NCBI GenBank assembly: GCA_001723855.1 | Contig: MCBC01000108.1 | Coordinates: 1-30,582, forward strand | DNA: 30,582 bases | Direction of reading: 5' to 3' | Source: Candidatus Altarchaeales archaeon WOR_SM1_86-2 | GTDB taxonomy: Archaea; Altiarchaeota; Altiarchaeia; IMC4; MCBC01 | In this document: positions 6,449-26,791 of the stretch, one piece after another | Layout: every line of letters begins with the position of its first letter | Position numbering within the stretch: the first letter of the stretch is position 1 | Position numbers and translations under genes: made by a program | The notes under the pieces: generated by a model | The model's input: only the letters and a program-made list of their open reading frames with translations | Databases searched by the model: none | Told to the model about the DNA's origin: nothing

Positions 6449-6967
6449 ATGGCGAAGAAAAAGAAGGAAGAAAAAGGGGAAATGGTCCCGAGGGAGTACT
6501 GGAGTCCGTCAAGCATGATGAGAGAACTGGACAGAATGTTTGATGATTTCCGGGGCGATTTCGAGGATATGTTCTGGGGCAGCGGCTTTGGCAGACCCTG
6601 GAGATTTCCAGGAATCAGAATGCCCGAGCTGGAGACAAAAGAGCCATTGGTTGATCTGGTTGATAAGGGAAATGAATTCCTGCTGACCGCAGAACTTCCG
6701 GGGATAGCAAAGGATAAGATAGATATTAATGTATCGGAGAACAGCGTTGAGATCAGGGCAGAGGAGAAAGTGGAGAAGGAAGAGAAGGAGGAAGGTTATG
6801 TCTGCAGGGAAAGGTCTTATCAGGGATTCTACAGGAAATTATCCCTTCCGGAAGAAGTTGCTGCGGATAAGGCAAACGCAGAGATGAAAAATGGCGTGCT
6901 CAAGGTTACAGTGCCAAAGAAAAAGCCAATTCCAAAACCCAAAGCGCGCAGGTTAGAAATTAAATAA
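6449..6967 (+). CDS. Small heat-shock protein, Hsp20/alpha-crystallin family
   Basis: A 172-residue ATP-independent holdase chaperone. A lysine/glutamate-rich N-terminus leads into an aromatic-rich arm (about 15-55), then the alpha-crystallin domain at about 62-152 with AELPGIAKDKI, the IDINV strand and the closing GVLKVTVPKK motif near 148-157. A proline-rich basic C-terminal tail ends in LEIK, an IXI-like anchor for oligomerisation. The length is normal for archaeal Hsp20. It is followed by a T-run terminator and lies upstream of the thermosome, so this is a protein-folding stress locus. Heat induction is inferred. Confidence 0.95.
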   Translation: MAKKKKEEKGEMVPREYWSPSSMMRELDRMFDDFRGDFEDMFWGSGFGRPWRFPGIRMPELETKEPLVDLVDKGNEFLLTAELPGIAKDKIDINVSENSVEIRAEEKVEKEEKEEGYVCRERSYQGFYRKLSLPEEVAADKANAEMKNGVLKVTVPKKKPIPKPKARRLEIK

Positions 6968-6981
6968 TTTTTTTCTTTTTT
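6968..6981 (+). terminator. T-run terminator after the Hsp20 gene
   Basis: A nearly uninterrupted run of T (one C) directly after the Hsp20 stop codon, the usual form of an intrinsic archaeal terminator. No stable hairpin is needed or seen. Confidence 0.55.
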
Positions 6982-7044
6982 ATTATACCAAATAAACTAA
7001 ACTTCTTAAAAAAAACTTCTTACAAAAAGTAACAAAATAAAAAA

Positions 7045-7218
7045 ATGCCAAAGTGTTGCAGGGAATGCTGGGATTATGAGGGATGTGAAAATAGGAACGG
7101 CTGTTGCGAAAAATGCCATTACTATGAAGAAGAAAATGATGAATGCGCCCACGAGGAGGAAGAATATTTTAGCGAGTATGAAGATGAACATGGTAGATAT
7201 TATGATGAATATTATTAG
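7045..7218 (+). CDS. Small Cys-rich, acidic-tailed protein, copy 1
   Basis: A 57-residue protein of unknown function. The first 33 residues hold eight cysteines (CCxxC, single C, single C, CCxxC, C: positions 4, 5, 8, 14, 20, 21, 24, 33), suggesting a zinc or iron-sulfur site. The rest is almost entirely Glu, Asp and Tyr. A homologue lies at 9779 and a decayed third copy at 16837, which supports this as a real gene family although it is short. It sits between Hsp20 and the thermosome, 39 bp before the latter. I do not recognise the family; metal storage, redox sensing or a chaperone partner are only guesses. Confidence 0.8.
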   Translation: MPKCCRECWDYEGCENRNGCCEKCHYYEEENDECAHEEEEYFSEYEDEHGRYYDEYY

Positions 7219-7257
7219 AGAAAATTCAAAATAACAAAAAATTAAAATAAATTTAAA

Positions 7258-8883
7258 ATGGCACAACAATACCCGATTTTGGTGCTCCCGGAGGGGGCAC
7301 TTAGGACAAGGGGCAGGGATGCCCAAAGGAACAATATCATGGCAGCACGACAAGTTGCAGATGCTGTCAAGACGACTCTTGGACCGAGAGGAATGGATAA
7401 GATGCTGGTTGATTCCTTGGGGGATATCACCATAACGAATGACGGCGCAACCATAGTGGATGAGATGAATGTTGAGCACCCGGCAGCGAAGATGATGGTC
7501 GAGGTAGCAAAAACCCAGGACGACGAGGTCGGGGACGGCACCACAACCGCGGTGGTTCTGACAGGGGAATTGTTGAAAGGGGCGGAGTCACTGCTGGACC
7601 AGAATATACATCCCTCGGTGATCGCGAAGGGTTTCAGAATGGCTGCCCATAAATCCCATGAGATTTTGGATGAGATCGGGAAGGAAGTGGGCATGAAGGA
7701 TGAAAAGTTGTTAAAGAAAATCGCAGAGACGGCAATGACGGGAAAAAGTGCCGAAGTTGCAAAGGAAGGATTAGCGGATTTGGCGGTAAATGCCGTTAGA
7801 CAGGTAGCGGAGGACGAGAACGGAAAAGTCAGGGTGGATATGGACAATATAAAGGTTGAGAAAACCAAGGGCGGAAGTATTTCTGATTCGGAGTTGATCA
7901 GGGGGATAATAATTGACAAAGAAAGAGTGCATTCGGGAATGCCAAAGAAGGTTAAAAATGCAAAGATCGCTTTGGTTGACGCCGCAATTGAAGTTAAAAA
8001 AACAGAGACCGATGCAAAGATACAGATAAATGATCCGATGCAGATCCAGGCATTTCTTGATCAGGAAGAGCACATGATCAAAGAGATGGTGGAAAAGATC
8101 GCTAAGTCAGGAGCAAATGTTTTGCTGTGCCAGAAGGGTATTGATGATCTTGCACAGCATTACCTGGCAAAGAAAGGGATTTTCGCGATAAAAAGTGTGA
8201 AGAAGTCGGATATGCAGAAACTTGCAAAAGCAACCGGTGCAAGGATTGTGACAAGTTTGGATGATTTAAGCAAAAAAGATTTAGGCAGCGCGGAAGAGGT
8301 TGAAGAAGAAAAGATTTCAGGTGATGAGATGACCTTTGTGAGGGGATGTAAGGATCCGAAGGCGGTGAGCGTTCTCGTGAGGGGCGGGACAGAGCATGTT
8401 GTTGATGAAGTGGAGAGAGCCATGACCGATGGTCTGGGGGGTGTAGCTTCGGCTTTAGAAGTGGGTAAAATTGTAACGGGGGGCGGAGCTGTTGAGATCG
8501 AACTTGCCAGGAGGTTGAGGGATTATGCAAATGAGGTCGGCGGAAGAGAACAATTAGCAATAAATGTGTTTGCGGATGCGATAGAGGTTATACCAAGAAC
8601 TCTGGCTGAGTCGGCGGGAATGGATGCCATCGATACGCTTGTTAAATTAAGGGCAGAACACGAGAAAGGAAACACGGACGCGGGAGTGGATGTTCTGGGT
8701 GCAAAAGTTAAAGATATGGGAAAAGACGGGGTCATTGAGCCGTTAAAGATCAAGACCCAGGCGATCAAATCGGCATCCGAGGCGGCAGAGATGCTGTTGC
8801 GCATAGACGATATTATCGCGGCATCCAAGAGGGAAACGCCTCGTATGCCGCCTGGCGGCGGGGGAATGGAAGACATGTATTAA
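7258..8883 (+). CDS. thsA: Thermosome subunit (group II chaperonin)
   Basis: A 541-residue subunit of the archaeal group II chaperonin, an ATP-driven double-ring folding machine in the cytoplasm. Visible motifs: LGPRGMDKM near 41-49, the NDGATI loop at 61-66, the nucleotide-binding GDGTTT at 92-97, and the GGG-rich C-terminal end followed by MEDMY. The equatorial, intermediate and apical domains are all present at normal length, including the helical-protrusion region near 240-270. Which of the paralogous subunits (alpha, beta or gamma) it is cannot be decided. It follows the Hsp20 and Cys-rich genes and precedes an NAD(P)H repair enzyme, consistent with a stress-response cluster. Confidence 0.96.
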
Positions 8884-8917
8884 ACTAATTTTTTAAAGAG
8901 CAAATTAAAATCTGAAA

Positions 8918-9772
8918 ATGCGCACTGTATCTGTAGAGGACATATACCCAATACTTAAGGAGAGGAAAAAGGATGCTGAGAAGGGCGATCATGGAAGGTT
9001 GATGATCGTAGGCGGCTCCTACAGGTGCATTAACGCTCCCGTTCTCACGGGAATTGCCGCTTACAGAGCGGGAGTTGATGCGGCAACTATATGCACCCCA
9101 AGAAGGGTTGCTCCAATAATCCAAACCCTTTCTTTGGATGTCAGAATAAGAGAATTAATGTCCGATTCATTTATAACCCCCAGGGATGTGCCTTTGTTAA
9201 TTGAAGAGGTAAATAAACATAATTCGGTAATTATCGGTCCGGGCGGTGGAGGAAGTGCAGACACAAAGAAGGCATACAGGCGGTTTATAGGTAATGTTAA
9301 AAAGAGCATTGCCATAGATGCATCAGGTATATCATCTCTAAAGAAAAATATCAATAAAATCAATGGAAGAAAAATAGTTCTGACGCCCAACATTAAAGAG
9401 TTCAGGAAACTGACAGGTAAAAAAATTGAAAGTTTTGAGGAAGCATGCGACGAGGTCAAGAAATTCTGTAAGGAACACAGGACAGTGGTTGTTTTAAAGG
9501 GTGAAAAAGACATAATTTCAGACGGCAATAAATTGTTTGTGAATGAAACAGGCAACCCCGGTATGAGCTGCGCGGGCACAGGTGATGTTTTTGTCGGGGT
9601 GCTGGGTGCATTTATGGCAAGAAAAATAGGCAGATTTGATGCTGCAACAGCAACGGCGTTTATTGTCGGAAGGGCAGCAGATGATCTGTACGAGAGGTAT
9701 GGTTACGGATACACGGCATCTGATCTGGCATTAGAGATAGCGTTCACGATAAAAAATATACCCACAAAATAA
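8918..9772 (+). CDS. nnrD: ADP-dependent NAD(P)H-hydrate dehydratase
   Basis: A 284-residue ribokinase-fold enzyme that restores NAD(P)H from its hydrated, damaged form using ADP. Seen: GGSYRCINAPVLTG near 31-44 (the usual GGS...Y.GAP...A segment), the GPGGGG loop near 107-112, TPN..EF near 150-156, VLKG near 188-191, and the signature NPGMSCAGTGDVFVG near 211-225 with the catalytic Asp in GTGD. The N-terminal epimerase (NnrE) domain found in many bacterial Nnr fusions is absent, so this is a stand-alone dehydratase. It begins 34 bp after the thermosome and is followed 6 bp later by the second Cys-rich gene. Confidence 0.9.
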   Translation: MRTVSVEDIYPILKERKKDAEKGDHGRLMIVGGSYRCINAPVLTGIAAYRAGVDAATICTPRRVAPIIQTLSLDVRIRELMSDSFITPRDVPLLIEEVNKHNSVIIGPGGGGSADTKKAYRRFIGNVKKSIAIDASGISSLKKNINKINGRKIVLTPNIKEFRKLTGKKIESFEEACDEVKKFCKEHRTVVVLKGEKDIISDGNKLFVNETGNPGMSCAGTGDVFVGVLGAFMARKIGRFDAATATAFIVGRAADDLYERYGYGYTASDLALEIAFTIKNIPTK

Positions 9773-9778
9773 GAAAAA

Positions 9779-9967
9779 ATGCCAAAGTGTTGTGAGAGAT
9801 GCCGGGATTATGAGGGATGTGAAAACAGGAATGGCTGCTGTGAAAAATGCCATTACTATGATGAAGAAAACGACGAATGCACCTACGAGGAGGAGGAATA
9901 TTTTGATGAGTATGAAGATGAAGAGGAGCATGAAGATGAATACGACAGATACTGTGATGAATATTAG
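9779..9967 (+). CDS. Small Cys-rich, acidic-tailed protein, copy 2
   Basis: A 62-residue protein, close in sequence to the one at 7045: the same CCxxC...C...C CCxxC...C framework and an acidic tail of Glu, Asp and Tyr, here lengthened by an EEEHEDEYD insertion and with an extra Cys near the C-terminus (RYCDEY). It starts 6 bp after the NAD(P)H-hydrate dehydratase, apparently in the same transcript. Function unknown. The tail is low complexity and probably disordered. Conservation of all eight N-terminal cysteines between copies argues for a metal site under selection. Confidence 0.8.
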   Translation: MPKCCERCRDYEGCENRNGCCEKCHYYDEENDECTYEEEEYFDEYEDEEEHEDEYDRYCDEY

Positions 9968-10227
9968 GGAGCAATGAAACTCACGGAATGTTCCGGTTCA
10001 TACACAGCCGAGGTGTTTATACGAACAAAGCGTAAGAGATAAGGATGAAAGAAGAAGCATCAAAGGGCAAACCACAACAAAATTGAGTAAGAGCGTCAAG
10101 AGCAATGGAATCACCAGGACATGTCCCGAACTTGGAAGAGCATGTGCATTCCGATTGGCTGCGCCGGATATTTAGTTCAAAATAACTATTTATTAAATAA
10201 TCCAATACATGGCATCATATAAAATAA
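9968..10227 (+). other. 260-bp intergenic region
   Basis: No convincing gene. A 22-codon frame at 9974-10042 has no recognisable product. An AT-rich tract from about 10170 to 10220, with TATAAAAT just upstream of the ATG at 10228, probably holds the promoter of the five-gene operon that follows. No tRNA-like fold and no repeat was found. Confidence 0.35.
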
Positions 10228-12336
10228 ATGAAACAAAAAAACACCGAACTTGAACCCCCGCCGGATAGCAGACAACCGGTTTATGAAAGGTTGAAACAAT
10301 TGGGTGCTGATCTTGAAGAAATCACCAGGGTAAAAAGAAAGTACCCGATGAAGATATCCCCCTACTACCTTGGGCTAATACAGGCCAAGGATGACCCGAT
10401 ATGGAAACAATGTGTCCCGCACAAGGAGGAACTTGAGGACACTTTTAATGTTGAAGACCCCTTAAAAGAGGAAGAATACACACCAGTTCCCTATCTCGTC
10501 CATAAATACCCTGACCGGGTTCTACTTCTAATAAGCAGTAAATGCGCGGTGTACTGCCGATTCTGCACGCGAAAGCGTAAAGTAGGGAGGATACAGCAAA
10601 TACCGATGGAAGACATTTTCCGCGCAATAGAATACATAAAAGAGCACAAGGAAGTCAGGGATATCATAGTTTCGGGAGGAGACCCGCTCATGAGAAGCGA
10701 CAGTGAAATTGAAACAATTCTTAAGCGCCTGCGAGAAATACCCCACCTTCAGGTAATCCGCATCGGAACGAGAATGCCGTGCGTAAAGCCGTCGCGGGTA
10801 ACCCCCAGGCTTGCAAACATGCTTAAGAAATACCACCCACTGTATGTTAACATTCACTTTAACCACCCAAGAGAAATAACAGGGGAGTCAAAAAAGGCAT
10901 GCGAGATACTTGCAAACGCAGGAATTCCGCTCGGAAGCCAGACCGTTTTGTTAAGGGGCGTGAACGACTCGCCAGAGTTAATGAAGGAACTCGTAATAAA
11001 ACTGCTCAAGATGAGGGTTAAGCCGTACTACATATACCAGTGCGATCTCGTAAAAGGCGTTGATCATTTCAGGACACCCGTTGAAACGGGAATTGACATC
11101 ATGAAGCACATACAGGGATTCACTTCGGGTTTAAGCCTGCCACATTTCGTTATAGACGGTCCCGGCGGGAAGGTACCGATATCCCCGCAGTATGTAAAAG
11201 ACATAACCCCCGACCAGATTATCGTGACAAACTACCTCGGCAACATGTACAAGTATCCGGGCGTCAGAACCGAAACAAATAAACAGCTGTTTAACAAAAA
11301 AGTCTCGCATGTGGGCATAGCATTCAACCTCAAAAAAGACGCATCAAAAGGCGAGCGTTTTGACAAGTATGCAGAGTTTGATGACATAGAAACCATTGGT
11401 GCCATCACTAAGGCAATTGAAGCTGCTGGCTACGAGACAGTGCTTCTTGAAGCAGACCAGGACTTTTTCAATCGTGTGAAAACAAGCAATGTCGATTTCG
11501 TTTTTAATATAGCGGAAGGTATAAGCGGGGAGTCAAGGGAATCCCATGTGCCTGCTGTGCTTGAAATGCTTAACATTCCTTACTCCGGCTCTGGGGTTCT
11601 GACGCAGGCGATCACGCTTAACAAGAGCAGGAAAAAAGAGATATTAAATTACTATGGCATCCCGACGCCGAAGTTCCAGCTTTTCAGGAGCGCCCACCAG
11701 AAGATGGACCCTGAACTTAAATTCCCGCTTATTGTGAAACCCGATGCTGAAGGGTCAAGTGTGGGGATAACAAACAAGTCCCTTGTGTGTGACCTCCCGT
11801 CACTGAAGAAACAGGTCAGCCATGTAATAAAAACCTACTCGCAGAATGCCCTTGTCGAGGAATACTGCAACGGCAGGGAGTTTACAGTGGGGCTTCTCGG
11901 CAACAACGGTAAACTGCGGGTGCTTCCAATCGTTGAAATAAACTTTGAGCATCTTCCGGATAACCTGCATAAATTTGAGTCTTATGAGTCCAAGTGGATT
12001 TACGACAACCCGAAAAACCCGCATGATCCGCTTGTATGCCCCGCGATCCTGAAACCTAAGCTAAGAGCCCAGCTGGAGAAACTTGCCCGCACTACATTTT
12101 CAAAACTCGGGTGTGTTGACCTCTGCAGGATTGACATGAGACTGGACTCTAAAGGAATTCCGAATGTAATCGATGTTAATGCAATACCCGGGCTTATGCC
12201 TGACCCGAGAAGCAATTCACGCTTCACGCGGGCGTGCTATGCCGCAGGTATGACCTACGATCAGATGATTCTTGAGATACTTAACGCCGCATTAATCAGG
12301 TACAATCTTCTTATGCCATCCTCTAAAAAACAATGA
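10228..12336 (+). CDS. Fusion of KamA-type radical-SAM aminomutase and Ddl-like ATP-grasp ligase
   Basis: A 702-residue two-domain enzyme. Residues 1-350 match lysine 2,3-aminomutase: the SAM iron-sulfur motif C106xxxC110xxC113, SGGDPL at 149-154, the PLP lysine K315 in GPGGK, and D273 and D310, counterparts of the two lysine-binding aspartates of the clostridial enzyme, so L-lysine to L-beta-lysine is the likely reaction. Residues 358-695 are a D-Ala-D-Ala-ligase-like ATP-grasp module: NIAEGISGE near 427-435, IPYSGSG, K504 in IVKP, EGSSVGIT, VEEY, RIDMR and DVNAIPG. The fusion suggests that beta-lysine is directly ligated to another amino or carboxyl compound; that step is inference. It overlaps the next gene by 4 nt (ATGA). 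The PLP glycine loop is two residues shorter than in the clostridial enzyme. Confidence 0.88.
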   Translation: MKQKNTELEPPPDSRQPVYERLKQLGADLEEITRVKRKYPMKISPYYLGLIQAKDDPIWKQCVPHKEELEDTFNVEDPLKEEEYTPVPYLVHKYPDRVLLLISSKCAVYCRFCTRKRKVGRIQQIPMEDIFRAIEYIKEHKEVRDIIVSGGDPLMRSDSEIETILKRLREIPHLQVIRIGTRMPCVKPSRVTPRLANMLKKYHPLYVNIHFNHPREITGESKKACEILANAGIPLGSQTVLLRGVNDSPELMKELVIKLLKMRVKPYYIYQCDLVKGVDHFRTPVETGIDIMKHIQGFTSGLSLPHFVIDGPGGKVPISPQYVKDITPDQIIVTNYLGNMYKYPGVRTETNKQLFNKKVSHVGIAFNLKKDASKGERFDKYAEFDDIETIGAITKAIEAAGYETVLLEADQDFFNRVKTSNVDFVFNIAEGISGESRESHVPAVLEMLNIPYSGSGVLTQAITLNKSRKKEILNYYGIPTPKFQLFRSAHQKMDPELKFPLIVKPDAEGSSVGITNKSLVCDLPSLKKQVSHVIKTYSQNALVEEYCNGREFTVGLLGNNGKLRVLPIVEINFEHLPDNLHKFESYESKWIYDNPKNPHDPLVCPAILKPKLRAQLEKLARTTFSKLGCVDLCRIDMRLDSKGIPNVIDVNAIPGLMPDPRSNSRFTRACYAAGMTYDQMILEILNAALIRYNLLMPSSKKQ

Positions 12337-13895
12337 AAATAGGAATTCTTTATAATCTGGTGGACCGCATAGAACGCGGTTTTGAAATTGATGCGTTGTC
12401 CGATAATGAAATCGTGGAAACCGTTGGATATATACAAAAAGTTCTTGAGAAAAAGCATGAGGCAGTCCCGGTCCGCATCAGAAGAGAACTTCTCCCGATG
12501 CTTACGCAAGATAGTTTTGATTTTGTTTTTAACCTGTGTGAAGGAATCGAAGGGGATGTGAAGGGGGAAGCATTGATTCCTGCACTTCTTGATGTAATTA
12601 AAATTCCTTATACTGGGGCGGACTCTTTAACTCTTGGATTATGCCTTGATAAAATAAAAGTAAAACAGCTGCTTATCGCGAATAATATTCCTACCCCAGA
12701 TTACCAGATGTTTCATAACTCATCGGAAAAATTAAACCGAAAATTAAGATTCCCCCTCATCGTAAAGCCCGCTAACGAGGATGCGAGCGTCGGCATTACG
12801 GTTGATTCTGTTGTAAACAATGAGACGGATTTGTTCAGGGGAATTGAATTTATACTCAAAAATTACCACCAGCCGGCTCTTGTTGAAGAATACATTGACG
12901 GCAGGGAACTGAATGTTGCTATATTGGGCAACGGGAACTCTACTGAAGTGCTGCCTTTTTCAGAAATCATATACAATTTCAATGAAAATTTCCCGAAAAT
13001 ACTGACCTATGATGCAAAATGGATTGCGGATTCTGAAATGTTCAAAAAAACTACAGGGGTATGCCCTCCGCCCGTAAAACTTACCCGGGAAGTTGAAGAG
13101 CATATAAAAAAGCTTGCTGTTTCAGCATATAACATTACGGGATGCAGGGATTATGCAAGGGTGGATTTTCGTTTGAAGGGCAATATACCTTATGTTCTTG
13201 AAGTTAATCCCAATCCCGCAATCAATGTGGAAAGAGACAGCGGTTTTGTGAGAAGCGCGAGAGTAAGCGGTTTATCTTACGACGAACTCATTTACAGGAT
13301 ACTATCTCTGGCGATGGAAAGATACAAGATGAAGGCAGATTCTTCAGGTGAAAAAATTGATGACGCATACACAACCAACAATCTTATTGCAGTTGATGTC
13401 AAATTGAAACATATAGATATTTTGATGGAATGGTTCAATAACCCGGAAATATCTAAATATATGGATATGCCAGATGAAACCTATTCAAGGGAGAAACTCA
13501 TTGAGGGGTTTTTCGTAGCGAACCGGGATAAAAATTTTATTATAATTGAAAAAGAAAGCAATAAGGAGATTGGCTATTGCTCAATTTACGGCATAAACCG
13601 TTCAAATCAAAGTGCGGAATTTTCATATCTCATAGGCGAAAAACAATTCCAGGGGAAGGGTTATGGGAGGGAGATAGTTGAACTTTTACTGCATATGGGA
13701 TTTCACAAAATGGGACTTAACAGCATCACGGCTATCGTGACCCAGCAAAACACCAGATCTGTAAGGGTGTTTGAAAAGATGGGTTTTCGCAAAGTCGGGA
13801 TAAGGCGAGAGTACCATTTTATAAATGAAGAAAGACTTGATGAAATCCTTTTTGAAATAATCAAAAAGGATTATATAAAAAATAATTTAACATGA
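12333..13895 (+). CDS. Fusion of Ddl-like ATP-grasp ligase and GNAT acetyltransferase
   Basis: A 520-residue two-domain enzyme. Residues 1-335 form a second D-Ala-D-Ala-ligase-like ATP-grasp module similar to the C-terminal half of the preceding gene: FNLCEGIEGD near 66-75, IPYTGA at 91-96, K145 in IVKP, ASVGIT, VEEY, ARVDFR near 275-280 and EVNPNP at 290-295. Residues about 350-515 form a RimJ/RimL-like GNAT domain with the acetyl-CoA loop QFQGKGYG at 438-445 and N473...VFEKMGF near 479-485. The gene overlaps both neighbours by 4 nt, so it is translationally coupled. A plausible role is ligation and then N-acylation of an amino compound made by the aminomutase. N-acetyl-beta-lysine chemistry is known in archaea, but the substrate here is inferred. 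Confidence 0.86.
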   Translation: MKIGILYNLVDRIERGFEIDALSDNEIVETVGYIQKVLEKKHEAVPVRIRRELLPMLTQDSFDFVFNLCEGIEGDVKGEALIPALLDVIKIPYTGADSLTLGLCLDKIKVKQLLIANNIPTPDYQMFHNSSEKLNRKLRFPLIVKPANEDASVGITVDSVVNNETDLFRGIEFILKNYHQPALVEEYIDGRELNVAILGNGNSTEVLPFSEIIYNFNENFPKILTYDAKWIADSEMFKKTTGVCPPPVKLTREVEEHIKKLAVSAYNITGCRDYARVDFRLKGNIPYVLEVNPNPAINVERDSGFVRSARVSGLSYDELIYRILSLAMERYKMKADSSGEKIDDAYTTNNLIAVDVKLKHIDILMEWFNNPEISKYMDMPDETYSREKLIEGFFVANRDKNFIIIEKESNKEIGYCSIYGINRSNQSAEFSYLIGEKQFQGKGYGREIVELLLHMGFHKMGLNSITAIVTQQNTRSVRVFEKMGFRKVGIRREYHFINEERLDEILFEIIKKDYIKNNLT

Positions 13896-15229
13896 AAGCT
13901 TTAATAATTGCGGCTGGAAAAGGAAGCAGGTTGAATGATCTAACTATGGATAAACCCAAGGCATTAGCTCAACTTTTGGGTTTAACTTTAATTGAAAGGA
14001 TAATCTTGACCGCAAAACAAGCATGTATTGATGATTTTATCATAGTCACGGGATTTCGCGGTGGAAAGATAAAAGAGAAATTAGGTGACGGAGAAAGGTA
14101 TGGGGTGAAAATAACTTATATTGAAAATAATGACTGGAAGAAAGGAAACGGCGTCTCTGTTTTAAGTGCCAAGGAATTGTTGGATGAGCCGTTTATTTTG
14201 TTAATGTCGGACCACATCTTTGAGCATAGAATACTGGAAGATTTAAGGGAAACAAAATTTGAAGGCGATGAGTGCTTTCTGTGTGTTGATAAGGCACCTG
14301 CACAGTATATTGATATGGAGGATGCGACCAAGGTTAAGATAGAAAATGACAGAATAATTGATATTGGCAAGGAACTGAAGGAATATGATGCTGTTGACTG
14401 CGGTATATTCCTATTGTCCCCAATTGTTTTTGAAGCGCTTAAGGGGAGCATTAAGGAAGGTGATGAAACATTATCCGGCGGGATAAGAACTCTTGCAGGG
14501 AGGGGTAAAATGAAGCCCTTTGATATTAAAGACGGTTTCTGGATTGATATTGACACGAAAGTTAACTATGGAAATGCTGAAAAGATTTTATGCAAACGAC
14601 TAGTAAAGCAGTCTGACGGCCCCGTATCCCGGTTGTTGAATAGAACTGTATCGATACGCATATCCAAACCTCTGTTAAAGACCAAAATAACCCCTGATAC
14701 TATTTCAATTATAAGTTTCGGGATCGCCGTATTATCTGCCCTCTTTTTTTCTCTGGGTAATTATTCAAGTGTTATTATCGGCGGTCTGCTGGCCCAATTT
14801 TCATCAATAGTTGACGGCTGCGACGGTGAAGTTGCGCGGCTGAAGTTTCAACAAACGGATTACGGGGGCTGGTTTGACGCGGTTCTTGACAGGTACGCTG
14901 ATGCATTAATCATCCTCGGAATGACATACGGCTGCTGGCGTCTGAACCAAGATATCGAAATATGGCTCATCGGTTTTATTGCACTTGTCGGCAGTTTTAT
15001 GAACAGTTACACTGCAGACAGGTACGATGCTGCCTTCAGAAAGAAAATCAAAACAACGGGATTTAGAATAAGGATTGGAAGGGATGTGAGATTATTCCTG
15101 ATCATGACGGGGGCATTATTTAATCAGGTCTTTTATACTTTAATAATTATAGGAATATTAACAAATATTGAATCAATAAGGAGATTAATTTGTTTGAAGG
15201 AGAAACATCCAATAATTGGAGCAAATTAG
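13892..15229 (+). CDS. Fusion of sugar/alcohol-phosphate nucleotidyltransferase and CDP-alcohol phosphotransferase
   Basis: A 445-residue bifunctional protein. Residues 1-235 are a nucleotidyltransferase with the N-terminal LIIAAGKGSRL motif, KPKAL at 21-25 and metal-binding D107. Residues about 245-440 form a membrane-embedded CDP-alcohol phosphotransferase with the complete motif D308xxDGxxAR, then G325xxxD329xxxD333, and several hydrophobic helices. The same architecture is known in the IPCT/DIPPS enzyme that makes di-myo-inositol phosphate in hyperthermophiles, where the first domain makes CDP-inositol and the second joins it to another polar alcohol. Here the companions suggest a different acceptor or head group. 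It overlaps the preceding gene by 4 nt; no inositol-phosphate synthase is present in the window. Confidence 0.85.
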   Translation: MKALIIAAGKGSRLNDLTMDKPKALAQLLGLTLIERIILTAKQACIDDFIIVTGFRGGKIKEKLGDGERYGVKITYIENNDWKKGNGVSVLSAKELLDEPFILLMSDHIFEHRILEDLRETKFEGDECFLCVDKAPAQYIDMEDATKVKIENDRIIDIGKELKEYDAVDCGIFLLSPIVFEALKGSIKEGDETLSGGIRTLAGRGKMKPFDIKDGFWIDIDTKVNYGNAEKILCKRLVKQSDGPVSRLLNRTVSIRISKPLLKTKITPDTISIISFGIAVLSALFFSLGNYSSVIIGGLLAQFSSIVDGCDGEVARLKFQQTDYGGWFDAVLDRYADALIILGMTYGCWRLNQDIEIWLIGFIALVGSFMNSYTADRYDAAFRKKIKTTGFRIRIGRDVRLFLIMTGALFNQVFYTLIIIGILTNIESIRRLICLKEKHPIIGAN

Positions 15230-15245
15230 AAAAACCCATACAAAG

Positions 15246-16277
15246 ATGAAAAAACAGGATTTTTTGCAAAGGAAAATTCAGCATATTGATATAAAGAGTT
15301 TTAATTCCACCCCAATGGTTGAGCAGTTTGAAAACATGTCTTTCCAGGCAAGAAATCTCGCGAGAGCGGCAAAGATATATGATAAGATGCTTTCCGATAA
15401 AGAATGCACGATTATATTGTGTCTTGCAGGTTCTTTATTTAGCGCGGGCTTGAAGAAAGTGGTTTATGATCTGGTGGATAATAACATGGTTGACGTTATT
15501 GTTTCAACAGGAGCAATAATGGTTGACCAGGATTTCTTTGAAGCCCTTGGATTTAAACATTATTCTGGCACACCCTTTGTTGACGATAACGAATTAATGG
15601 AAATGCGAATAGACAGAATATATGACACATTTATTGATGAAAATGAGTTGAGGATATGCGATATGACTATTGCAGAGATCGCAGATGACCTTACACCAGG
15701 AGCGTATTCTTCAAGGGAATTCATAAGTTTTATGGGCGAATATTTAGATAAAAATAATAAAGGAAAAGGCTCTGTTGTCTGGAAAGCGTATAAAAAAGGA
15801 GTCCCCCTCTTTGCCCCCGCATTTTCCGACTGCTGTGCTGGTTTTGGTCTGGTTTATCACCAGTGGAAAAGAAAAGACAAACCAAATGCCTCTATTGACT
15901 CCGTAAAGGATTTCCTGGAACTAACAAAAATAAAGATTGCTTCAAAAGAAACCGGATTATTTATAGTTGGAGGAGGTGTTCCGAAAAACTTTGCACAGGA
16001 TGTAACCATAGCTGCCGATATTATCGGAAAGGAAGTCAGTATGCATAAATACGCTGTACAGATCACGGTGGCTGATGAAAGGGATGGTGCTTTATCGGGT
16101 TCAACTTTAAAGGAAGCCCATTCATGGGGCAAAGTGGATGAAGAGTTTGAGCAAATGGTATTTTCGGAGGCGACTATCGCATTTCCATTGATCGCCGGTT
16201 ACGCGTACTACAAAGGCAACTGGAAAAATCGCGGTCAAAAAAATTTCAATAACTTACTTAATAAAAACGAAAAATGA
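15246..16277 (+). CDS. Deoxyhypusine-synthase-family protein
   Basis: A 343-residue NAD-dependent enzyme of the deoxyhypusine synthase fold. Counting from the ATG at 15246: GGGVPKN near 242-248, then DERDGALSG and the catalytic SWGK motif with K296, the counterpart of Lys329 in human DHS. D280 and E290 match human D313 and E323, but the counterpart of human D316 is a Leu. Family members move the aminobutyl group of spermidine to aIF5A, or make homospermidine. Which applies here is open; the neighbouring arginine decarboxylase fits a polyamine role either way. A TTG at 15216 would add ten residues and overlap the upstream gene by 14 nt. I prefer the ATG. Confidence 0.85.
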
Positions 16278-16828
16278 ACAGCATGGTACCAAAAAAGGTA
16301 TTCCTCACAAGAGGAGCGGGGGTACATAAAGACAGATTGGCATCTTTTGAGCTGGCGTTAAGAAACGCCGGGATAGAGAGGTATAATATTGTTTATGTCT
16401 CAAGTATTTTCCCGCCCAATTGCAAAATAATAAGCAGGGAAAGAGGGTTGGGATACTTAAAGCCAGGGCAGATCATCTACTGTGTTATGGCAAGAAATGA
16501 AACAAATGAGCTAAACAGGCTTATATCTGCTGCTATCGGTTTGGCGGTTCCCAATGACAAAGATCAATACGGCTATTTGTCGGAACATCATGCTTTTGGA
16601 GAAAAAGCCAAAGTATCTGGCAATTATGCCGAAGATTTAGCAGCCACAATGCTTGCCACAACCTTTGGTATCCCCTTTGATCCGGATCAGGCATGGGATG
16701 AGAGAAAACAGGTTTACAAAGCAAGCGGGCATATATTTAGAACGAGGAACATATGTCAATCCGCTGAGGGCAATAAAGACGGCCTATGGACTACTGCGAT
16801 TGCAGTGGCCGTTTTCATTATGGATTAA
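16274..16828 (+). CDS. pdaD: Pyruvoyl-dependent arginine decarboxylase
   Basis: A 184-residue proenzyme that decarboxylates L-arginine to agmatine, the first step of archaeal polyamine synthesis. It self-cleaves between adjacent serines to make the pyruvoyl group; the site YVSSIFPP is at 41-48, with cleavage expected between S43 and S44. E110, in AFGEK, matches the catalytic Glu of the Methanocaldococcus enzyme. The length is close to characterised archaeal members (about 165). The ATG overlaps the stop of the deoxyhypusine-synthase-like gene by 4 nt, linking agmatine production directly to that enzyme; no agmatinase gene is in the window. Confidence 0.93.
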
Positions 16829-16836
16829 TAAAAAAA

Positions 16837-16995
16837 CCAAAGTGTTGTGAGAGATGCCGGGATTATGAGGGATGTGAAAACAGGAATGTCTGCTGCGAAA
16901 AATGCCATTAATATGATGAAGAAAACGACGAATGCACCTGCGAGGAAGAGGAATATTTTGATGAGTATGAAGATGAAGATGAATACGACAGATAA
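16837..16995 (+). pseudogene. Decayed third copy of the small Cys-rich gene
   Basis: The sequence follows copy 2 (9779) closely from the second codon (CCA AAG TGT TGT) to an acidic tail ending before TAA at 16993, but two changes disable it. The ATG is replaced by AAA, and a codon that is TAC in the other copies is TAA (16909-16911), immediately after the last Cys-x-x-Cys unit. One glycine codon has also become Val. It lies 8 bp after the arginine decarboxylase, just as copy 2 lies just after its upstream gene. Similarity is seen directly at the nucleotide level; inactivation is inferred. Confidence 0.8.
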
Positions 16996-17191: not shown

Positions 17192-18660
17192 AACTCCAGT
17201 TGATCCTGCTGGCGGCTACTGCTCTTGGGGTTCGATTAAGCCATGTGAGTCCAGGAATCTTTGATTCCTGGCGAACGACTCAGTAACACGTGGATAACCT
17301 GCCCTTAGGAAGAGTATAACCTCGGGAAACTGAGGACAATCCTCTATAGGTGAGAAGTTCTGGAATGACTCTCACTCAAAGCTTCGGCGCCTAAGGATGG
17401 GTCTGCGGTGGATTAGGCTGATGGCGGGGTAACGGCCCACCATACCTATAATCCATACCGGCTATGGGAGTAGGAGCCGGGAGATGAGTACTGAGACACG
17501 GACTCAGGCCCTACGGGGCGCATCAGGCGCGAAACCTTTGCAATGCACGCAAGTGTGACAAGGGAACCCTGAGTGTCTTCTCTTTGAGGGGACTTTTATG
17601 ATGTGCAAAAAGCATCATGAATAAGGGCTGGGTAAGACCCGTGCCAGCCGCCGCGGTAACACGGGCAGCCCAAGTGGTAGCCATGTTTATTGGGCTTAAA
17701 GCGTTCGTAGCCGGTCTGGTAAGTCCTCCGTGAAATCCTGTCGCTTAACGATAGGAATTGCAGAGGATACTACCTGACTTGGAGCCGGGATGCGTCAGAG
17801 GTATTCCTTGGGTAGGGGCGAAATCCGTTGATCCCTGGAGGACCACCAACGGCGAAGGCATCTGACTTGAACGGGCTCGACGGTGAGGAACGAAAGCTAG
17901 GGGAGCAAACCGGATCAGATACCCGGGTAGTCCTAGCCGTAAACGATGCGGACTGTATGTTGCTAAAGCTTTATGTTTTAGCAGTGTCGAAGGGAAACCG
18001 TTAAGTCCGCCGCCTGGGAAGTACGGTCGCAAGGCTGAAACTTAAAGGAATTGGCGGGGGATCACCACAAGGGGTGGAGTCTGCGGTTCAATTGGATACA
18101 ACACCGGGAAACTTACCAGGGACGACGGCAGGATGAAGGTCAGGCTGAAGGTCTTACCGAACGAGCCGAGAGGTAGTGCATGGCCATCGACAGCTCGTAC
18201 CGTGAGGCGTGCGGTTAAGTCCGCTAACGAGCAAGACCCGTGCCTTTATTTGCCACCCTTTTCTTTTGAAGAGGAGCACTATAAAGGGACCGCTGGCGAT
18301 AAGTCAGAGGAAGGTGCGGGCGACGGTAGGTCTGTATGCTCCGAATTTCCTGGGCTACACGTGGACTACAATGGCACAAACAGCGGGATGCAACTCCGAG
18401 AGGAGAAGCCAATCTCTTAAATTGTGTCTTAGTTCGGATTGAGCCTTGAAACTCGGGCTCATGAAGTTGAAATCCCTAGTAATCGCTCTTTATTAGAGAG
18501 CGGTGAATATGTCCCCGATCCTTGCACACACCGCCTGTCAAACCAATCGAGTGGACTTAGGTCGAGGCTCTCTCATCTGGGAAGGTCAAGATCTAGGCTT
18601 GCAAGAGGGGTTAAGTCATAACAAGGTAGCCGTAGGGGAATCTGCGGCTGGATCACCTCC
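17192..18660 (+). rRNA. rrs: 16S ribosomal RNA, complete
   Basis: About 1,470 bases with archaeal 16S landmarks from end to end: TCCAGTTGATCCTGCTGG at the 5' end, the 530-loop GTGCCAGCCGCCGCGGTAA near 17641, ATTAGATACCC-region variant GATCAGATACCC near 17915, AAACTTAAAGGAATTGGCGG near 18038, ACACCGCCTGTCA near 18527 and the anti-Shine-Dalgarno GGATCACCTCC at 18650-18660. Several normally conserved archaeal positions differ, for example GGGGGATCACC after the 915 region, pointing to a divergent lineage. Exact ends are estimates. No tRNA-Ala, 23S or 5S follows, so the rRNA genes are unlinked in this organism. Open frames inside this gene are spurious. Confidence 0.98.
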
Positions 18661-18673
18661 ATGAAAATAAGGG

Positions 18674-18877: not shown

Positions 18878-18926
18878 CTGTTTCTGAAGGTTGTCTTTTA
18901 TTTTTATGATCTTAATCAATGAAAAA

Positions 18927-21428
18927 ATGAAAACAAGAAAAATTCTGACATTAGTTATGGTTTTATTGAGCGCGTCTGCTCTTGCTCACGGGGCGGCGGA
19001 TGTTTATGTGGACAATGAAAACAATGCGGCGATTAAGGAAGTTGATACCGGGTATGATTATGGTATGAAGGACATAGATGTACTTTTAGCACTTGATCTG
19101 GTAGATGGGTTGGGGATCATAAACGGGCATATAACCCACGGGGATCTGGGTCCGGGCGATACGGGAAGTTTTTACATGGACGTTGAAGGGGATAAGGCAG
19201 AAGCTGTCGGGAGTTTTGACATAGACCCCTCTTCATTAGATGATTTTCAGGAAATAGGGGGGTATTTGAAATGGCTGGAGGATTCTAAAGATTCTGTTGC
19301 AGAGGGTAATTTAACGCTTAAAATAGAAAAAGATTATCCCGGAGAAGCGGCAATCTCGTCGCTCACGGTAAAAGGTGAATTTAATACAACCGGCACGACC
19401 ATGTCAACCTCGGGAACATTAACGGTGAGGGGTGAGGCAGTTGAGGAGGTGCCGATAAATGAAATAAGGATTAGAATAACAGAAGCGGGGGATGAAAAAA
19501 TAGAAACAAAGATAGATATACACCTGGATGTCCCAAATACATGGGAGTCGAAAAGTTTGATAGAGATGATGGAGGAAGCAAAAACAAGCCCCGATATGAT
19601 GGAGATGATGATATCGCAGCAGATCGGCATGGTTGGGATTGCGGCATCTGATGTATCCGTGGATAATGTGGCTGTGACGGACGAGTACGGCATGATGGAT
19701 GTTTCAATAACAATAGATGGGCTGCGGCAGAGTATAAGAACCATCGCCACCTATGAACTGGCAAATATGGGGTCCATGGGTTATATGGGGGGGGACTCCA
19801 CAATGGATACGAAAAAGATGCTTGATAATCTCGATCTTATGCTGGAGCTCAGGGTCGATGAATTTGAGATAAGCATGGAAAGGGAGGGGGACAGATTGAC
19901 GGCAGACTGGAATATGAAGTTCCTGAACACGGATAAAGCGGCGATCGGTTACCTTGGCTTGTATATCGAGATGATGGGCACATACGAGGACATGTTCGAT
20001 TATAGTGATTATGGCTATGATGAAATGGTCGTTGAGCCAGTGGAAATCGGGGATTACTTATTTATAATAGCCCCCTATGGTGTGGATGTGGGAGAAGATA
20101 TCGAGTTGGAGGTAACCGACATTTATGACGGGGGGGTTGAAGGTGTAAACGTCATCGCGGTTATGCCGGACGGGGATGTAAATGAATATGTAACGGATGA
20201 TAACGGAGCCGTAATAATCCCGGCTCTGAATGAATCCGGAATGCTCCTGATAGGGGCTGTGAAGGACGGCTACAGCCCGGATACGGGTTGGGTGGATGTC
20301 GGGTATGTGGATTACGGGAATCTCAGCGGATTGGAAGTTATCGTGCCGTGGGAGGTTAGCAAATGGGACGCTGTCGAGGTAAGGATTCTTGATGCGGACC
20401 GCAATCCTGTATTCAATGCATCCGTTGTCGCGTTATCTGCCGAAGGCGGATACGAAACTTATATGACCGACGACAACGGTGCGGTGAAATTTGTTGTAAC
20501 CCAATCCGGAACGATCTATCTGCTGGCTGCCAAGAAGGGTTATTCCCCGGGTGAAGAAAGTATAAGCATTGACAGCTACGAACCCGTGCCGCCTGCCAGA
20601 CCGGAACCTGCGATGGCATCATTCGGGGGGTTCATGAAAGTATATTTTAGAATGTTGGAGGGTATGATGGAGGACAGGAAACGGCTCATAGAAATAATGG
20701 CCGAGACGGATCTTTCAACCCGCACGGAGTTTGATCTGGACTATAAAGAAAATTCCGGCGGGTATGATCTCGGTGCATCATTTACATACGCCGCCGTAAA
20801 GAACTACCCGGAATATTATCAAAGAGCAAAGGACGAAGAGCTTCTCCAGTATGACAGCGGCAGAGCATACTTGAGCGTTGAGACAGAGGACGGGAGGCTG
20901 AAAGGGGAGGGTTATACGGAGGTTGTTCTTTCGCCAGGATACAGTGCCAGGATGAACGATAGATTGATGGATGCTGCGGCTGACGGCGAAAAAGAAATGT
21001 CCGATATGCTTAAAGATCTTGAGTTTCACGATGCGAAATTTGCACTAACGGTAAAGAACGGGCACATTGACATGAAAGGCTACTTTGACACATCCGACCT
21101 CTCCAGGATAACAAACTATATGTTGAAGGGGATATACCCCGGGTTTGAAGGATCCCTGACCGATTTGGAGGTAAGTGCTTCAGGTGCAGATGAATATACA
21201 ACTGAAATGAACATTTACTGTAAGGATTTTATGGCAGGGAAATCCGGGGATGAGATAAAAGAACTTGATATTGTCGGTTACGGTGCTGAAGTCCATATGG
21301 GTGCGTCAAGCAGCGATACGACCCGTGCCGGGGGGGCTGGCATAGACAGGACATTGATTTTGATTATAGCTGCCGCGGTTATAGGGGTGGCGATAATATG
21401 CCTTTTGTTTCTGAAGAGAAGTAAATGA
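18927..21428 (+). CDS. Large secreted, C-terminally membrane-anchored surface protein
   Basis: An 833-residue protein. The ATG at 18927 is preferred over an in-frame one at 18891 because it places a classical signal peptide first (MKTRKILTLVMVLLSASALA, then HGA). The extracellular part is acidic and methionine-rich, with an alpha/beta-looking region near 1-370. Two tandem beta-sandwich segments of the carboxypeptidase-regulatory or Ig-like type follow near 380-460 and 470-545; each contains a TDDNGAV motif and ends with a KxGYSP motif. A second helical region runs to about 790. A single transmembrane helix at about 806-828 is followed by a short basic tail. It is probably a cell-envelope or adhesion protein. 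I do not recognise a named family. Confidence 0.85.
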   Translation: MKTRKILTLVMVLLSASALAHGAADVYVDNENNAAIKEVDTGYDYGMKDIDVLLALDLVDGLGIINGHITHGDLGPGDTGSFYMDVEGDKAEAVGSFDIDPSSLDDFQEIGGYLKWLEDSKDSVAEGNLTLKIEKDYPGEAAISSLTVKGEFNTTGTTMSTSGTLTVRGEAVEEVPINEIRIRITEAGDEKIETKIDIHLDVPNTWESKSLIEMMEEAKTSPDMMEMMISQQIGMVGIAASDVSVDNVAVTDEYGMMDVSITIDGLRQSIRTIATYELANMGSMGYMGGDSTMDTKKMLDNLDLMLELRVDEFEISMEREGDRLTADWNMKFLNTDKAAIGYLGLYIEMMGTYEDMFDYSDYGYDEMVVEPVEIGDYLFIIAPYGVDVGEDIELEVTDIYDGGVEGVNVIAVMPDGDVNEYVTDDNGAVIIPALNESGMLLIGAVKDGYSPDTGWVDVGYVDYGNLSGLEVIVPWEVSKWDAVEVRILDADRNPVFNASVVALSAEGGYETYMTDDNGAVKFVVTQSGTIYLLAAKKGYSPGEESISIDSYEPVPPARPEPAMASFGGFMKVYFRMLEGMMEDRKRLIEIMAETDLSTRTEFDLDYKENSGGYDLGASFTYAAVKNYPEYYQRAKDEELLQYDSGRAYLSVETEDGRLKGEGYTEVVLSPGYSARMNDRLMDAAADGEKEMSDMLKDLEFHDAKFALTVKNGHIDMKGYFDTSDLSRITNYMLKGIYPGFEGSLTDLEVSASGADEYTTEMNIYCKDFMAGKSGDEIKELDIVGYGAEVHMGASSSDTTRAGGAGIDRTLILIIAAAVIGVAIICLLFLKRSK

Positions 21429-25456: not shown

Positions 25457-25957
25457 TTATTGCTCTTGCTTATATTCCAACCACGATTCAACTTTTTTAT
25501 TCAACCATTCAATGAAATTTTTGTTTATAACTTCATAGTTTTTAGTTAGATCATTTAAGTTTTCAAAAAATGTTTCATGATTCCATACCACAACTGGACA
25601 TTCTCCTTCCTCAAATTTATTGGTGTCAAAACAGTCATAATCTCCGTTCCCATAATCATAAAAGGGGATCAAGTTATTAGGGATATAGTAATTCGGTCGA
25701 TAATCATTTCTCAGTTCTAAAGTCAGCTTTACAATATTCATACCTTGATAATCAGGGTGGTCTTCACCTATCCCACAAATTACAAAGTGCCCGATACCCC
25801 CTCCATTAAAATCCTGTAGGAAACGTTTATAGCTCTCTGGTAATTTTACACCTAATATCTTCTCTGCTTCTTTTATTTCCTCTATATTTGCCCCTTTCCT
25901 AAATTTGGTATCCTCTTGTATGGATAACAACTTAGTTTTTAGTTTTTTGTAATCCAT
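25457..25957 (-). CDS. SMI1/KNR4 (SUKH-1) immunity protein, module 2
   Basis: A 166-residue protein with the SUKH-1 signature: EIKEAEKILGVKLPESYKRFLQDFNGGGIG near 24-53, a central LIPFYDYGNGDYDCFD near 97-112 and CPVVVWNHE near 119-127. SUKH proteins are common immunity partners of nuclease toxins delivered by RHS and related systems. It begins 13 bp after the stop of the HNH-toxin RHS cassette at 25970, in the same direction. Inhibition of that nuclease is inferred from family and position. Confidence 0.9.
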   Translation of the reverse strand: MDYKKLKTKLLSIQEDTKFRKGANIEEIKEAEKILGVKLPESYKRFLQDFNGGGIGHFVICGIGEDHPDYQGMNIVKLTLELRNDYRPNYYIPNNLIPFYDYGNGDYDCFDTNKFEEGECPVVVWNHETFFENLNDLTKNYEVINKNFIEWLNKKVESWLEYKQEQ

Positions 25958-25969
25958 TTTATATTTAAT

Positions 25970-26791
25970 CTATGATCGTGCATGTAGTTCTCCGAAGTTT
26001 TCTAGATGTTCTGTCATAGTCATCGGCTCCAAATTACTAAAGTCATTTGTTCCACCTTCACTTAATAGTTTTTTGTGATGTAAGACCATTGGTTTCCCAT
26101 CGGACCCGTATGGGGCTTTGCCTTGCTTCATAAGTTCTAAATTTTGTTTACTCCATTTATCTGGATTCTTTGCAGCCTCTTGCTTCCAGTATTCTGGCTT
26201 TACTGTATTCTCAAATTCGGCCCTCTTCTTTTGCAATTCTTCCCCTGTCACTTTGGTTTGTTTTGAAGCATCTGCGCCTTTATCAGCATTACCTGCATCG
26301 CTCGCCTTATCCGTAGCCTTTGAAGCATCTGCTGTTTCATCCCCTGCCTTTGAAGCATCAGCCGCTTTATCCCCTGCCTTCGTAAACTTCAGACTCTTTA
26401 GTGGTTTGGTAGGGGGAAAATTCGTAAGAGCCCAAAAAGCATTCCCTGCTGAGGGCTCCTCTAGGAAATTTACAACATCAGCCCCTCCAAGAACCTCCCA
26501 TACTAAATCAGAAACCGTATCACCCTCACTCTGGACTTGGTATTGGTATAACGAGTCATAGAATGTTCCTTGCTCTTCGCATGTTGGACAGTATGTGCTC
26601 TCATGCCCAGTCGGATCAACATACTTCAACGGATTATTCAGCACATACGAATATCTATTTAGATATTGAGGGTTATAAATGTCAGGAATCACCGAATCGG
26701 GCTGCACAAACCTCCTCACCTCCGGCGAGTAATACCTCGCCCCATAGTAATACAACCCCGTCTCAGCATCCCTTTCCTGCCCCGTAAACAA
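25970..26791 (-). CDS. Orphan RHS tip with C-terminal HNH-type nuclease toxin, module 2
   Basis: 273 residues from a TTG (at 26791) inside FTGQERDAETG. RHS-core similarity continues upstream in the same frame to 26978 with no ATG, GTG or TTG, so the true start is unclear. The RHS core ends at NPLKYVDPTGHE. A linker with repeated short Ala/Asp/Lys units (KAADASKAGDETADASKATD) follows. The last ~90 residues form an HNH/LHH-type nuclease: PYGSDGKPMVLHHKKLLSEGG, then NDFSNLEPMTMTEH..NF, with the paired His residues typical of these DNases. Next to the SMI1/KNR4 gene it forms a complete toxin-immunity pair. Expression may need recombination onto a full RHS gene. Confidence 0.82.
   Translation of the reverse strand: MFTGQERDAETGLYYYGARYYSPEVRRFVQPDSVIPDIYNPQYLNRYSYVLNNPLKYVDPTGHESTYCPTCEEQGTFYDSLYQYQVQSEGDTVSDLVWEVLGGADVVNFLEEPSAGNAFWALTNFPPTKPLKSLKFTKAGDKAADASKAGDETADASKATDKASDAGNADKGADASKQTKVTGEELQKKRAEFENTVKPEYWKQEAAKNPDKWSKQNLELMKQGKAPYGSDGKPMVLHHKKLLSEGGTNDFSNLEPMTMTEHLENFGELHARS

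What the first reader, a model, noticed from the sequence alone, without database searches (positions are those of the whole stretch)
10228..16828. Five-gene overlapping operon that looks like an undescribed conjugate-biosynthesis pathway
Four junctions are ATGA overlaps or near-contacts, so the enzymes are almost certainly expressed together: aminomutase-ligase, ligase-acetyltransferase, nucleotidyltransferase-CDP-alcohol transferase, DHS-like and arginine decarboxylase. Together they could make a beta-lysine or agmatine/polyamine-containing compound attached to a phospho-alcohol head group (osmolyte or lipid). I know of no described pathway with this enzyme set.
Basis: partly seen in the sequence, partly recalled or inferred. 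Interest (0 to 1): 0.85.

Follow-up and report, generated by a model that had tools for sequence, protein, structure and literature searches.

The report
Composite beta-lysine, inositol, polyamine operon
Five overlapping archaeal genes are real and probably read together, but they look like three separate small-molecule pathways placed side by side; the unstudied one, which seems to make beta-lysine and then link and acetylate it, has relatives in many bacteria and some archaea and may make an unknown protective compound.

Summary
The five genes and their tight spacing are confirmed: three ATGA overlaps and one 16-nt gap. A single pathway is not supported; the block falls into three modules. 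(1) g1+g2: lysine 2,3-aminomutase (KAM) fused to a Ddl-type ATP-grasp (LIG1), then a second ATP-grasp (LIG2) fused to a GNAT acetyltransferase. g1 and g2 stay linked elsewhere. KAM+LIG occurs in 46 of 80 KAM loci, 37 of 46 with a GNAT within 1 kb, against 0 of 34 KAM-only loci. (2) g3: a relative of the inositol-phosphate enzyme IPCT/DIPPS, below its cut-off. (3) g4+g5: caldomycin synthase and arginine decarboxylase, a known agmatine-coupling route (PMC10981699). No g3-g5 homologue was found in the 46 module loci. Best reading: a composite stress-solute operon between ~170-bp direct repeats, containing an apparently undescribed module that probably makes an N-acetylated beta-lysine peptide. 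That product and role are inferred, not tested. The listed rows of five open-access searches showed no description of the module.

The parts
9770..9951 (+). Left copy of flanking direct repeat; overlaps an intact 62-aa Cys-rich acidic ORF (9779-9967)
   Evidence: 162 of 169 aligned bases identical to right copy; D1 family; a 29-mer from it occurs twice in the window, up to 3 mismatches allowed; ORF
10189..10199 (+). TATA-box-like TTTATTAAATA about 30 nt before the g1 ATG; possible archaeal promoter
   Evidence: sequence inspection; not tested
10228..11307 (+). g1 N-terminal part: lysine 2,3-aminomutase (KAM), radical SAM/PLP
   Evidence: PF04055, PF12544; TIGR00238 295.9 bits over cut-off 199.2; 2a5h E 2e-111
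11344..12336 (+). g1 C-terminal part: LIG1, D-Ala-D-Ala-ligase-type ATP-grasp
   Evidence: PF07478 E 3e-33; model matches DdlB structures
12333..13337 (+). g2 N-terminal part: LIG2, second ATP-grasp
   Evidence: PF07478 E 5e-32; model pLDDT 91.9, pTM 0.88, matches Ddl structures
13368..13895 (+). g2 C-terminal part: GNAT acetyltransferase (called type A here)
   Evidence: PF13302 E 3e-24; no AblB (TIGR03827) match
13892..14611 (+). g3 N-terminal part: nucleotidyltransferase
   Evidence: PF00483; relatives 4mnd and 2xme
14612..15229 (+). g3 C-terminal part: CDP-alcohol phosphotransferase
   Evidence: PF01066; AF2299 4o6m E 1e-46
15246..16277 (+). [quoted passage not shown]
   Evidence: NF002699 577.5 bits over cut-off 500; Phe in place of human DHS Asp243, SWGK Lys kept
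16274..16828 (+). g5: pyruvoyl-dependent arginine decarboxylase
   Evidence: NF009064 212.5 over 207, TIGR00286 130.7 over 106.95
16826..16994 (+). Right copy of the flanking repeat; its small ORF has lost the start codon and carries a stop

Best explanation
A composite, probably co-transcribed operon of three independently evolving biosynthetic modules, each predicted to make a small protective solute or cation. Module 1 (g1-g2): KAM turns L-lysine into beta-lysine, LIG1 and LIG2 make one or two ATP-driven amide bonds with it, and the GNAT caps an amine, giving an N-acetylated beta-lysine peptide that probably acts as a compatible solute. Module 2 (g3): activates inositol-1-phosphate with CTP and transfers phospho-inositol to an alcohol (di-myo-inositol-phosphate type). 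Module 3 (g5 then g4): arginine to agmatine, two agmatines to caldomycin. Shown here: the enzyme families, the gene order, g1-g2 linkage, the KAM/LIG/GNAT association, and conservation of the two Asp that align with the lysine-binding Asp of KAM. Inferred: co-transcription, all substrates and products, the solute role, and arrival of the block as a unit.
For: g1-g2 linkage: 19 contig lengths shared between the two 120-row hit lists, control mean 0.46, max 4. Module: LIG in 46 of 80 KAM loci; GNAT-B within 1 kb in 37 of 46 against no such GNAT in 34 KAM-only loci. LIG1 and LIG2 split cleanly in a tree of 91 domains (48 vs 43, no errors, support 1.0). The window's GNAT and the GNAT-B family are not detectably alike (E 2-3), and a LIG2-GNAT fusion also exists with the other type (L015), so acetylation joined the module at least twice. 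D273 and D310 align with 2a5h D293/D330 and are invariant in 32 hand-chosen rows. g3: homologues at 38-44% lie directly downstream of inositol-phosphate synthase in G302 and G303; 19 of 29 genomes of the nearest phylum have that synthase. g4/g5: curated cut-offs passed; adjacent in the same order in G253 and G182; PMC10981699 (outline and passages seen) reports that CdmS couples two agmatines.
Against: No expression or metabolite data. The solute role of module 1 rests on analogy: no transporter or mechanosensitive channel among the neighbouring ORFs sampled (10, 3 of L020), and no osmotic-type riboswitch in 18 of the 46 loci (a TPP riboswitch in L013). The substrates of LIG1 and LIG2 are unknown. 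g3 scores far below the NF041135 cut-off and no inositol-phosphate synthase lies in the operon. ADC was found next to CdmS in only 2 of the 6 genomes of that phylum with a close CdmS (in G235 the contig ends about 500 nt after it). Nine of 46 module loci lack the GNAT-B neighbour, and L005 and L018 show only one LIG. g1 differs in GC3 (0.53) from g2-g5 (0.38-0.43). The g1 model has pTM 0.54, so its domain arrangement is uncertain. All 80 loci were picked through KAM patterns, so KAM-free LIG pairs would be missed.
Confidence: 0.62

Rival explanations
1. One pathway: the ATP-grasp enzymes join beta-lysine to agmatine or caldomycin and g3 adds a phospho-alcohol, giving a single conjugate.
For: Tight spacing of all five genes. 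CdmS homologues at 53% identity or more in 16 of 45 module genomes.
Against: No linkage of g3 with g1 or g2 above control; no g4/g5 homologue in 80 KAM loci; 20 of 45 module genomes have no DHS-family match at E 0.001; a single hit spanning both g3 domains in 1 of 45 (G319, 41%); g4-g5 sit beside an agmatinase-type gene in G182.
Confidence: 0.08
2. g1-g2 make something other than an osmolyte: a beta-lysyl tag on a protein, wall or lipid component, or an antibiotic-like peptide.
For: Ddl-type ATP-grasps are best known from wall and peptide synthesis (family knowledge); beta-lysine is used for EF-P and in antibiotics (recalled).
Against: The few neighbours sampled show no wall, NRPS or export genes, though L003 has a histidine kinase and response regulator beside a stray LIG; the module looks self-contained in many phyla. 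No direct test of the target.
Confidence: 0.25
3. The five-gene run is a misassembly at the 170-bp repeat.
For: The block is bounded by a 96% direct repeat, and no whole genome is held for the window.
Against: Overlaps inside the block are exact; the repeat copies have diverged; identical or near-identical g1, g2 and g3 proteins are listed from other records (P0001, P0121, P0241), though independence of samples and spanning of the flanks were not shown.
Confidence: 0.05

Closest known systems
AblA/AblB N-epsilon-acetyl-beta-lysine pathway (osmolyte of methanogens and 'Ca. Methanoperedens'; PMC11337218, passages seen)
   Same: Lysine 2,3-aminomutase plus a GNAT acetyltransferase encoded together
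   Different: Two ATP-grasp ligases are added; the GNAT does not match TIGR03827 (AblB); g1 is below the AblA equivalog cut-off (434.7 vs 525.4)
Caldomycin / homospermidine route of Thermus thermophilus (CdmS; PMC10981699, outline and passages seen)
   Same: Agmatine-coupling DHS homologue; arginine decarboxylase supplies agmatine
   Different: Here in an archaeon next to unrelated modules; no ureohydrolase among the 19 window ORFs scanned with Pfam, so the end product of this locus may be caldomycin itself
Bifunctional IPCT/DIPPS of Thermococcales and Archaeoglobus (NF041135; 4mnd)
   Same: Same two-domain order; both domains align
   Different: 315.5 bits against a cut-off of 580; no inositol-phosphate synthase beside it
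D-Ala-D-Ala ligases (Ddl)
   Same: ATP-grasp fold, PF07478
   Different: Below the TIGR01205 cut-off; fused to KAM or GNAT; two paralogues in separate clades
N-acetylglutaminylglutamine amide synthesis (recalled)
   Same: ATP-grasp and GNAT functions combined to make an acetylated peptide osmolyte (recalled)
   Different: No aminomutase (recalled); relation not tested here

Membership tests
Caldomycin synthase (NF002699) | Score over curated cut-off | tested here: met
   577.5 vs 500 bits
Caldomycin synthase (NF002699) | Phe where human DHS has Asp243; catalytic Lys in SWGK kept | tested here: met
   Alignments to 7cmc and human DHS; residues named in PMC10981699. The Leu at the Asp316 position is shared with 7cmc and does not discriminate
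Caldomycin synthase (NF002699) | Couples two agmatines | not testable with these tools
   needs enzyme assay
Pyruvoyl-dependent arginine decarboxylase | Score over curated cut-offs | tested here: met
   NF009064 212.5/207; TIGR00286 130.7/106.95
Pyruvoyl-dependent arginine decarboxylase | Ser at the self-cleavage position | tested here: met
   'VSSIFPP' aligned to 'ISAIMPP' of 1n2m; that 1n2m is an S53A mutant is recalled
Lysine 2,3-aminomutase | Asp pair binding the lysine side chain, CxxxCxxC, PLP Lys | tested here: met
   D273, D310, C106/C110/C113, K315 invariant in 32 hand-chosen rows, aligned to 2a5h; roles of the residues recalled
Lysine 2,3-aminomutase | AblA equivalog cut-off (TIGR03820) | tested here: not met
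   434.7 vs 525.4; the wider KamA family cut-off is met (295.9/199.2)
N-epsilon-acetyl-beta-lysine pathway (AblA/AblB) | AblB acetyltransferase (TIGR03827) | tested here: not met
   not among the 23 families reported for the window GNAT at E 0.001
Bifunctional IPCT/DIPPS (NF041135) | Score over curated cut-off | tested here: not met
   315.5 vs 580
Bifunctional IPCT/DIPPS (NF041135) | Linked inositol-1-phosphate synthase | tested here: inconclusive
   none among the five genes; adjacent to 38-44% homologues in G302 and G303
D-Ala-D-Ala ligase | TIGR01205 cut-off | tested here: not met
   155.3 (g1) and 147.2 (g2) vs 245.65

The most novel reading that the evidence does not exclude
KAM-LIG1-LIG2-GNAT is a widespread, undescribed pathway that builds an N-acetylated beta-lysine di- or tripeptide used as a compatible solute by bacteria of many phyla and by some archaea; in this archaeon it has been combined with inositol-phosphate and guanidino-polyamine synthesis in a single stress-solute operon carried between direct repeats.
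Probability: 0.4. Interest if true: 0.75.

Novelty: new variant of a known kind. Interest (0 to 1): 0.55.

Why it matters
A module of four functions recurs in loci titled Ignavibacteria, Bacteroidetes, Deltaproteobacteria, Acidobacteria, Planctomycetes, Chloroflexi, Neomarinimicrobiota and others; archaeal and Omnitrophota loci also have KAM with two LIGs, but without the GNAT-B neighbour (titles). One carrier of KAM, LIG1, LIG2 and GNAT is a named strain, Prolixibacter denitrificans DSM 27267 (L006), so its product can be looked for directly. [quoted passage not shown] kamA genes inside this module may serve something else.

Tried and rejected
One-pathway reading: rejected on linkage. Lipid head-group reading of g3: weakened because 38-44% homologues lie directly after inositol-phosphate synthase in two genomes, but not excluded. 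Viral or plasmid origin: an IMG/VR scan gave 44 loci with KAM relatives, 2 of them (L139, L146) with a LIG hit; not pursued. Empty-site search around the 16S gene: the nine 16S regions of relatives showed no hit to the small Cys-rich ORF or g1-g5; one of them (L272, G300) has Hsp20 and thermosome genes about 6 kb from its 16S, so part of the neighbourhood is shared, but the order differs and no clean empty site could be shown. Salt riboswitch search in 18 of 46 module loci: none. Neighbour search for a transporter or wall link: none among those sampled; the RecG and glycerol-3-phosphate genes near several Ignavibacteria loci look lineage-specific. g3 in 117 Omnitrophota genomes: one match at E 1e-60 or better, not informative. 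Taxonomy: no genome is held for the window; the closest 16S found is 83% (G219, G308, G303) in an unnamed archaeal phylum of 29 held genomes; its name was not established.

Full report
OBSERVATION. The five ORFs exist as described: g1 10228-12336, g2 12333-13895, g3 13892-15229, g4 15246-16277 (best start), g5 16274-16828. Three junctions are ATGA overlaps and g3/g4 is a 16-nt gap. A TATA-like stretch lies about 30 nt before g1. The window is archaeal: thermosome gene, ribosomal S24e, and a complete archaeal 16S gene at 17193-18661.

WHAT THE ENZYMES ARE. g1 is a KamA-family lysine 2,3-aminomutase joined to a Ddl-type ATP-grasp. The Asp residues that align with 2a5h D293 and D330 (lysine side-chain binding, recalled) are D273 and D310, invariant in 32 hand-picked rows, so lysine is the likely substrate. 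g2 is a second Ddl-type ATP-grasp joined to a GNAT. g3 has the domain order of the IPCT/DIPPS enzyme. g4 passes the caldomycin-synthase cut-off and has Phe where human DHS has Asp243, as CdmS does. g5 passes two arginine-decarboxylase cut-offs.

ARE THEY ONE PATHWAY? Linkage was looked at in four ways. (a) Contig lengths in the three protein hit lists: g1-g2 share 19 (control with shifted lengths: mean 0.46, max 4), g1-g3 share 1 (0.75, max 3), g2-g3 share 1 (0.92, max 4). The lists are cut at 120 rows, so weak or distant linkage could be missed. (b) 80 genome loci with a KAM relative: 46 carry LIG; none shows a g4 or g5 homologue at E 1e-4, and only one (L057, a KAM-only locus) has a weak CDP-alcohol hit (flanks up to 10 kb, less at contig ends). 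(c) Whole genomes of 45 of the 46 module carriers: 42 of 45 have some match to g3 (mostly single domains), but a single hit spanning both domains in 1 of 45 (G319, 41%), with N- and C-domain hits on one contig in G337; DHS-family matches in 25 of 45, of which 16 at 53% identity or more. (d) The nearest phylum by 16S (29 genomes): no fused g1; unfused KAM, LIG1 and LIG2 together only in G306; a close g3 (82% over residues 206-440, cut by a contig end) only in G308, which has no g1 match and no close g4; close CdmS (66-80%) in 6 of 29, with g5 directly after it in G253 and G182, and in G182 an agmatinase-type gene directly before it. Completeness of these genomes is not told, so absences are soft. 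Closer g3 relatives than that of G308 exist as proteins (96% and 79%) but their context could not be seen. Together the results point to three modules.

THE UNDESCRIBED MODULE. LIG1 and LIG2 form two clean clades, 48 and 43 domains, no misplacement, support 1.0; labels were set by similarity to the window's own domains, so the clean split is supportive rather than independent. A GNAT of one family (type B) lies within 1 kb of KAM or LIG in 37 of 46 module loci, and none of the GNAT queries hit within 1 kb in 34 KAM-only loci. Of the nine without it, L004 and L016 run close to the contig end and L005 and L018 show only one LIG; the two archaeal loci (L001, L032) and the Omnitrophota locus L017 are also among the nine. 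The window's GNAT (type A) is not detectably related to type B beyond the fold (E 2-3), yet both are found fused to LIG2 (window and 12 listed relatives; L015). Separate recruitments of an acetyltransferase argue that acetylation is part of the chemistry. Among the neighbours sampled no transporter, wall or NRPS gene appeared; what did appear varied (RecG and glycerol-3-phosphate genes in Ignavibacteria, a histidine kinase and response regulator in L003, PEP carboxylase, helicases, glycosidase). No riboswitch of the osmotic kind was found in 18 loci. The simplest mechanism is lysine to beta-lysine, one or two amide ligations, then N-acetylation, giving a low-charge soluble peptide. The known beta-lysine osmolyte pathway (AblA/AblB; PMC11337218, passages seen) makes the solute reading the first guess, but the window's GNAT does not match AblB.

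FLANKING REPEAT. A direct repeat (162 of 169 aligned bases) lies on both sides of the block (9770-9951, 16826-16994). The left copy holds most of an intact 62-aa Cys-rich acidic ORF, the right copy is decayed. In G308 the close g3 homologue lies directly before a NAD(P)H-hydrate dehydratase gene 84% identical to the one that precedes the left repeat here, so this neighbourhood has been rearranged. Duplication with partial loss, or insertion by recombination, would both fit; neither was shown. g1 also differs from g2-g5 in GC3 (0.53 vs 0.38-0.43).

LITERATURE. Searches for the aminomutase plus ATP-grasp or D-Ala-ligase module listed 20, 20, 12, 12 and 12 papers out of 31, 28, 169, 29 and 177 holding enough terms; none of the listed titles and abstract starts describes it. 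Passages of PMC2412884, PMC11337218, PMC9337991 and PMC2922099 do not either, and PMC4431377 does not hold the terms. The library is open-access PMC only, and one possibly relevant paper was not held. Caldomycin is in one held paper.

VERDICT. The operon is best read as a bundle of three small-solute pathways, two known in kind and one apparently undescribed but widespread.

Noticed in passing
9770-9951 and 16826-16994: Direct repeat flanking the five-gene block, with an intact small Cys-rich acidic ORF on the left and a decayed copy on the right.
   Followed up: partly
25457-26791 (- strand): LHH-type nuclease ORF followed by a SUKH (SMI1/KNR4) ORF, looking like a toxin-immunity pair in an archaeal window.
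   Followed up: no
17193-18661: Complete 16S gene; ARAGORN found no tRNA in the window. Best 16S identity among the genomes searched is 83%, so the lineage looks deep.
   Followed up: partly
L261 (G154) 8910-12719: A LIG1 homologue (55%) heads a run of overlapping genes with two proteins of 485 and 451 aa that match no Pfam family at E 0.001.
   Followed up: no
L262 (G134) 6541-9452 and L264 (G174) 9542-12456: LIG1-like genes (41%) beside a gene of about 616-619 aa, a glycogen debranching enzyme in L262.
   Followed up: no
6449-9772: Hsp20, thermosome and NAD(P)H-hydrate dehydratase genes lie directly upstream of the operon, suggesting a stress-related region.
   Followed up: no
18891-21428: 845-aa ORF with one carboxypeptidase-regulatory-like domain and no other Pfam match at E 0.001, downstream of the 16S gene.
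   Followed up: no
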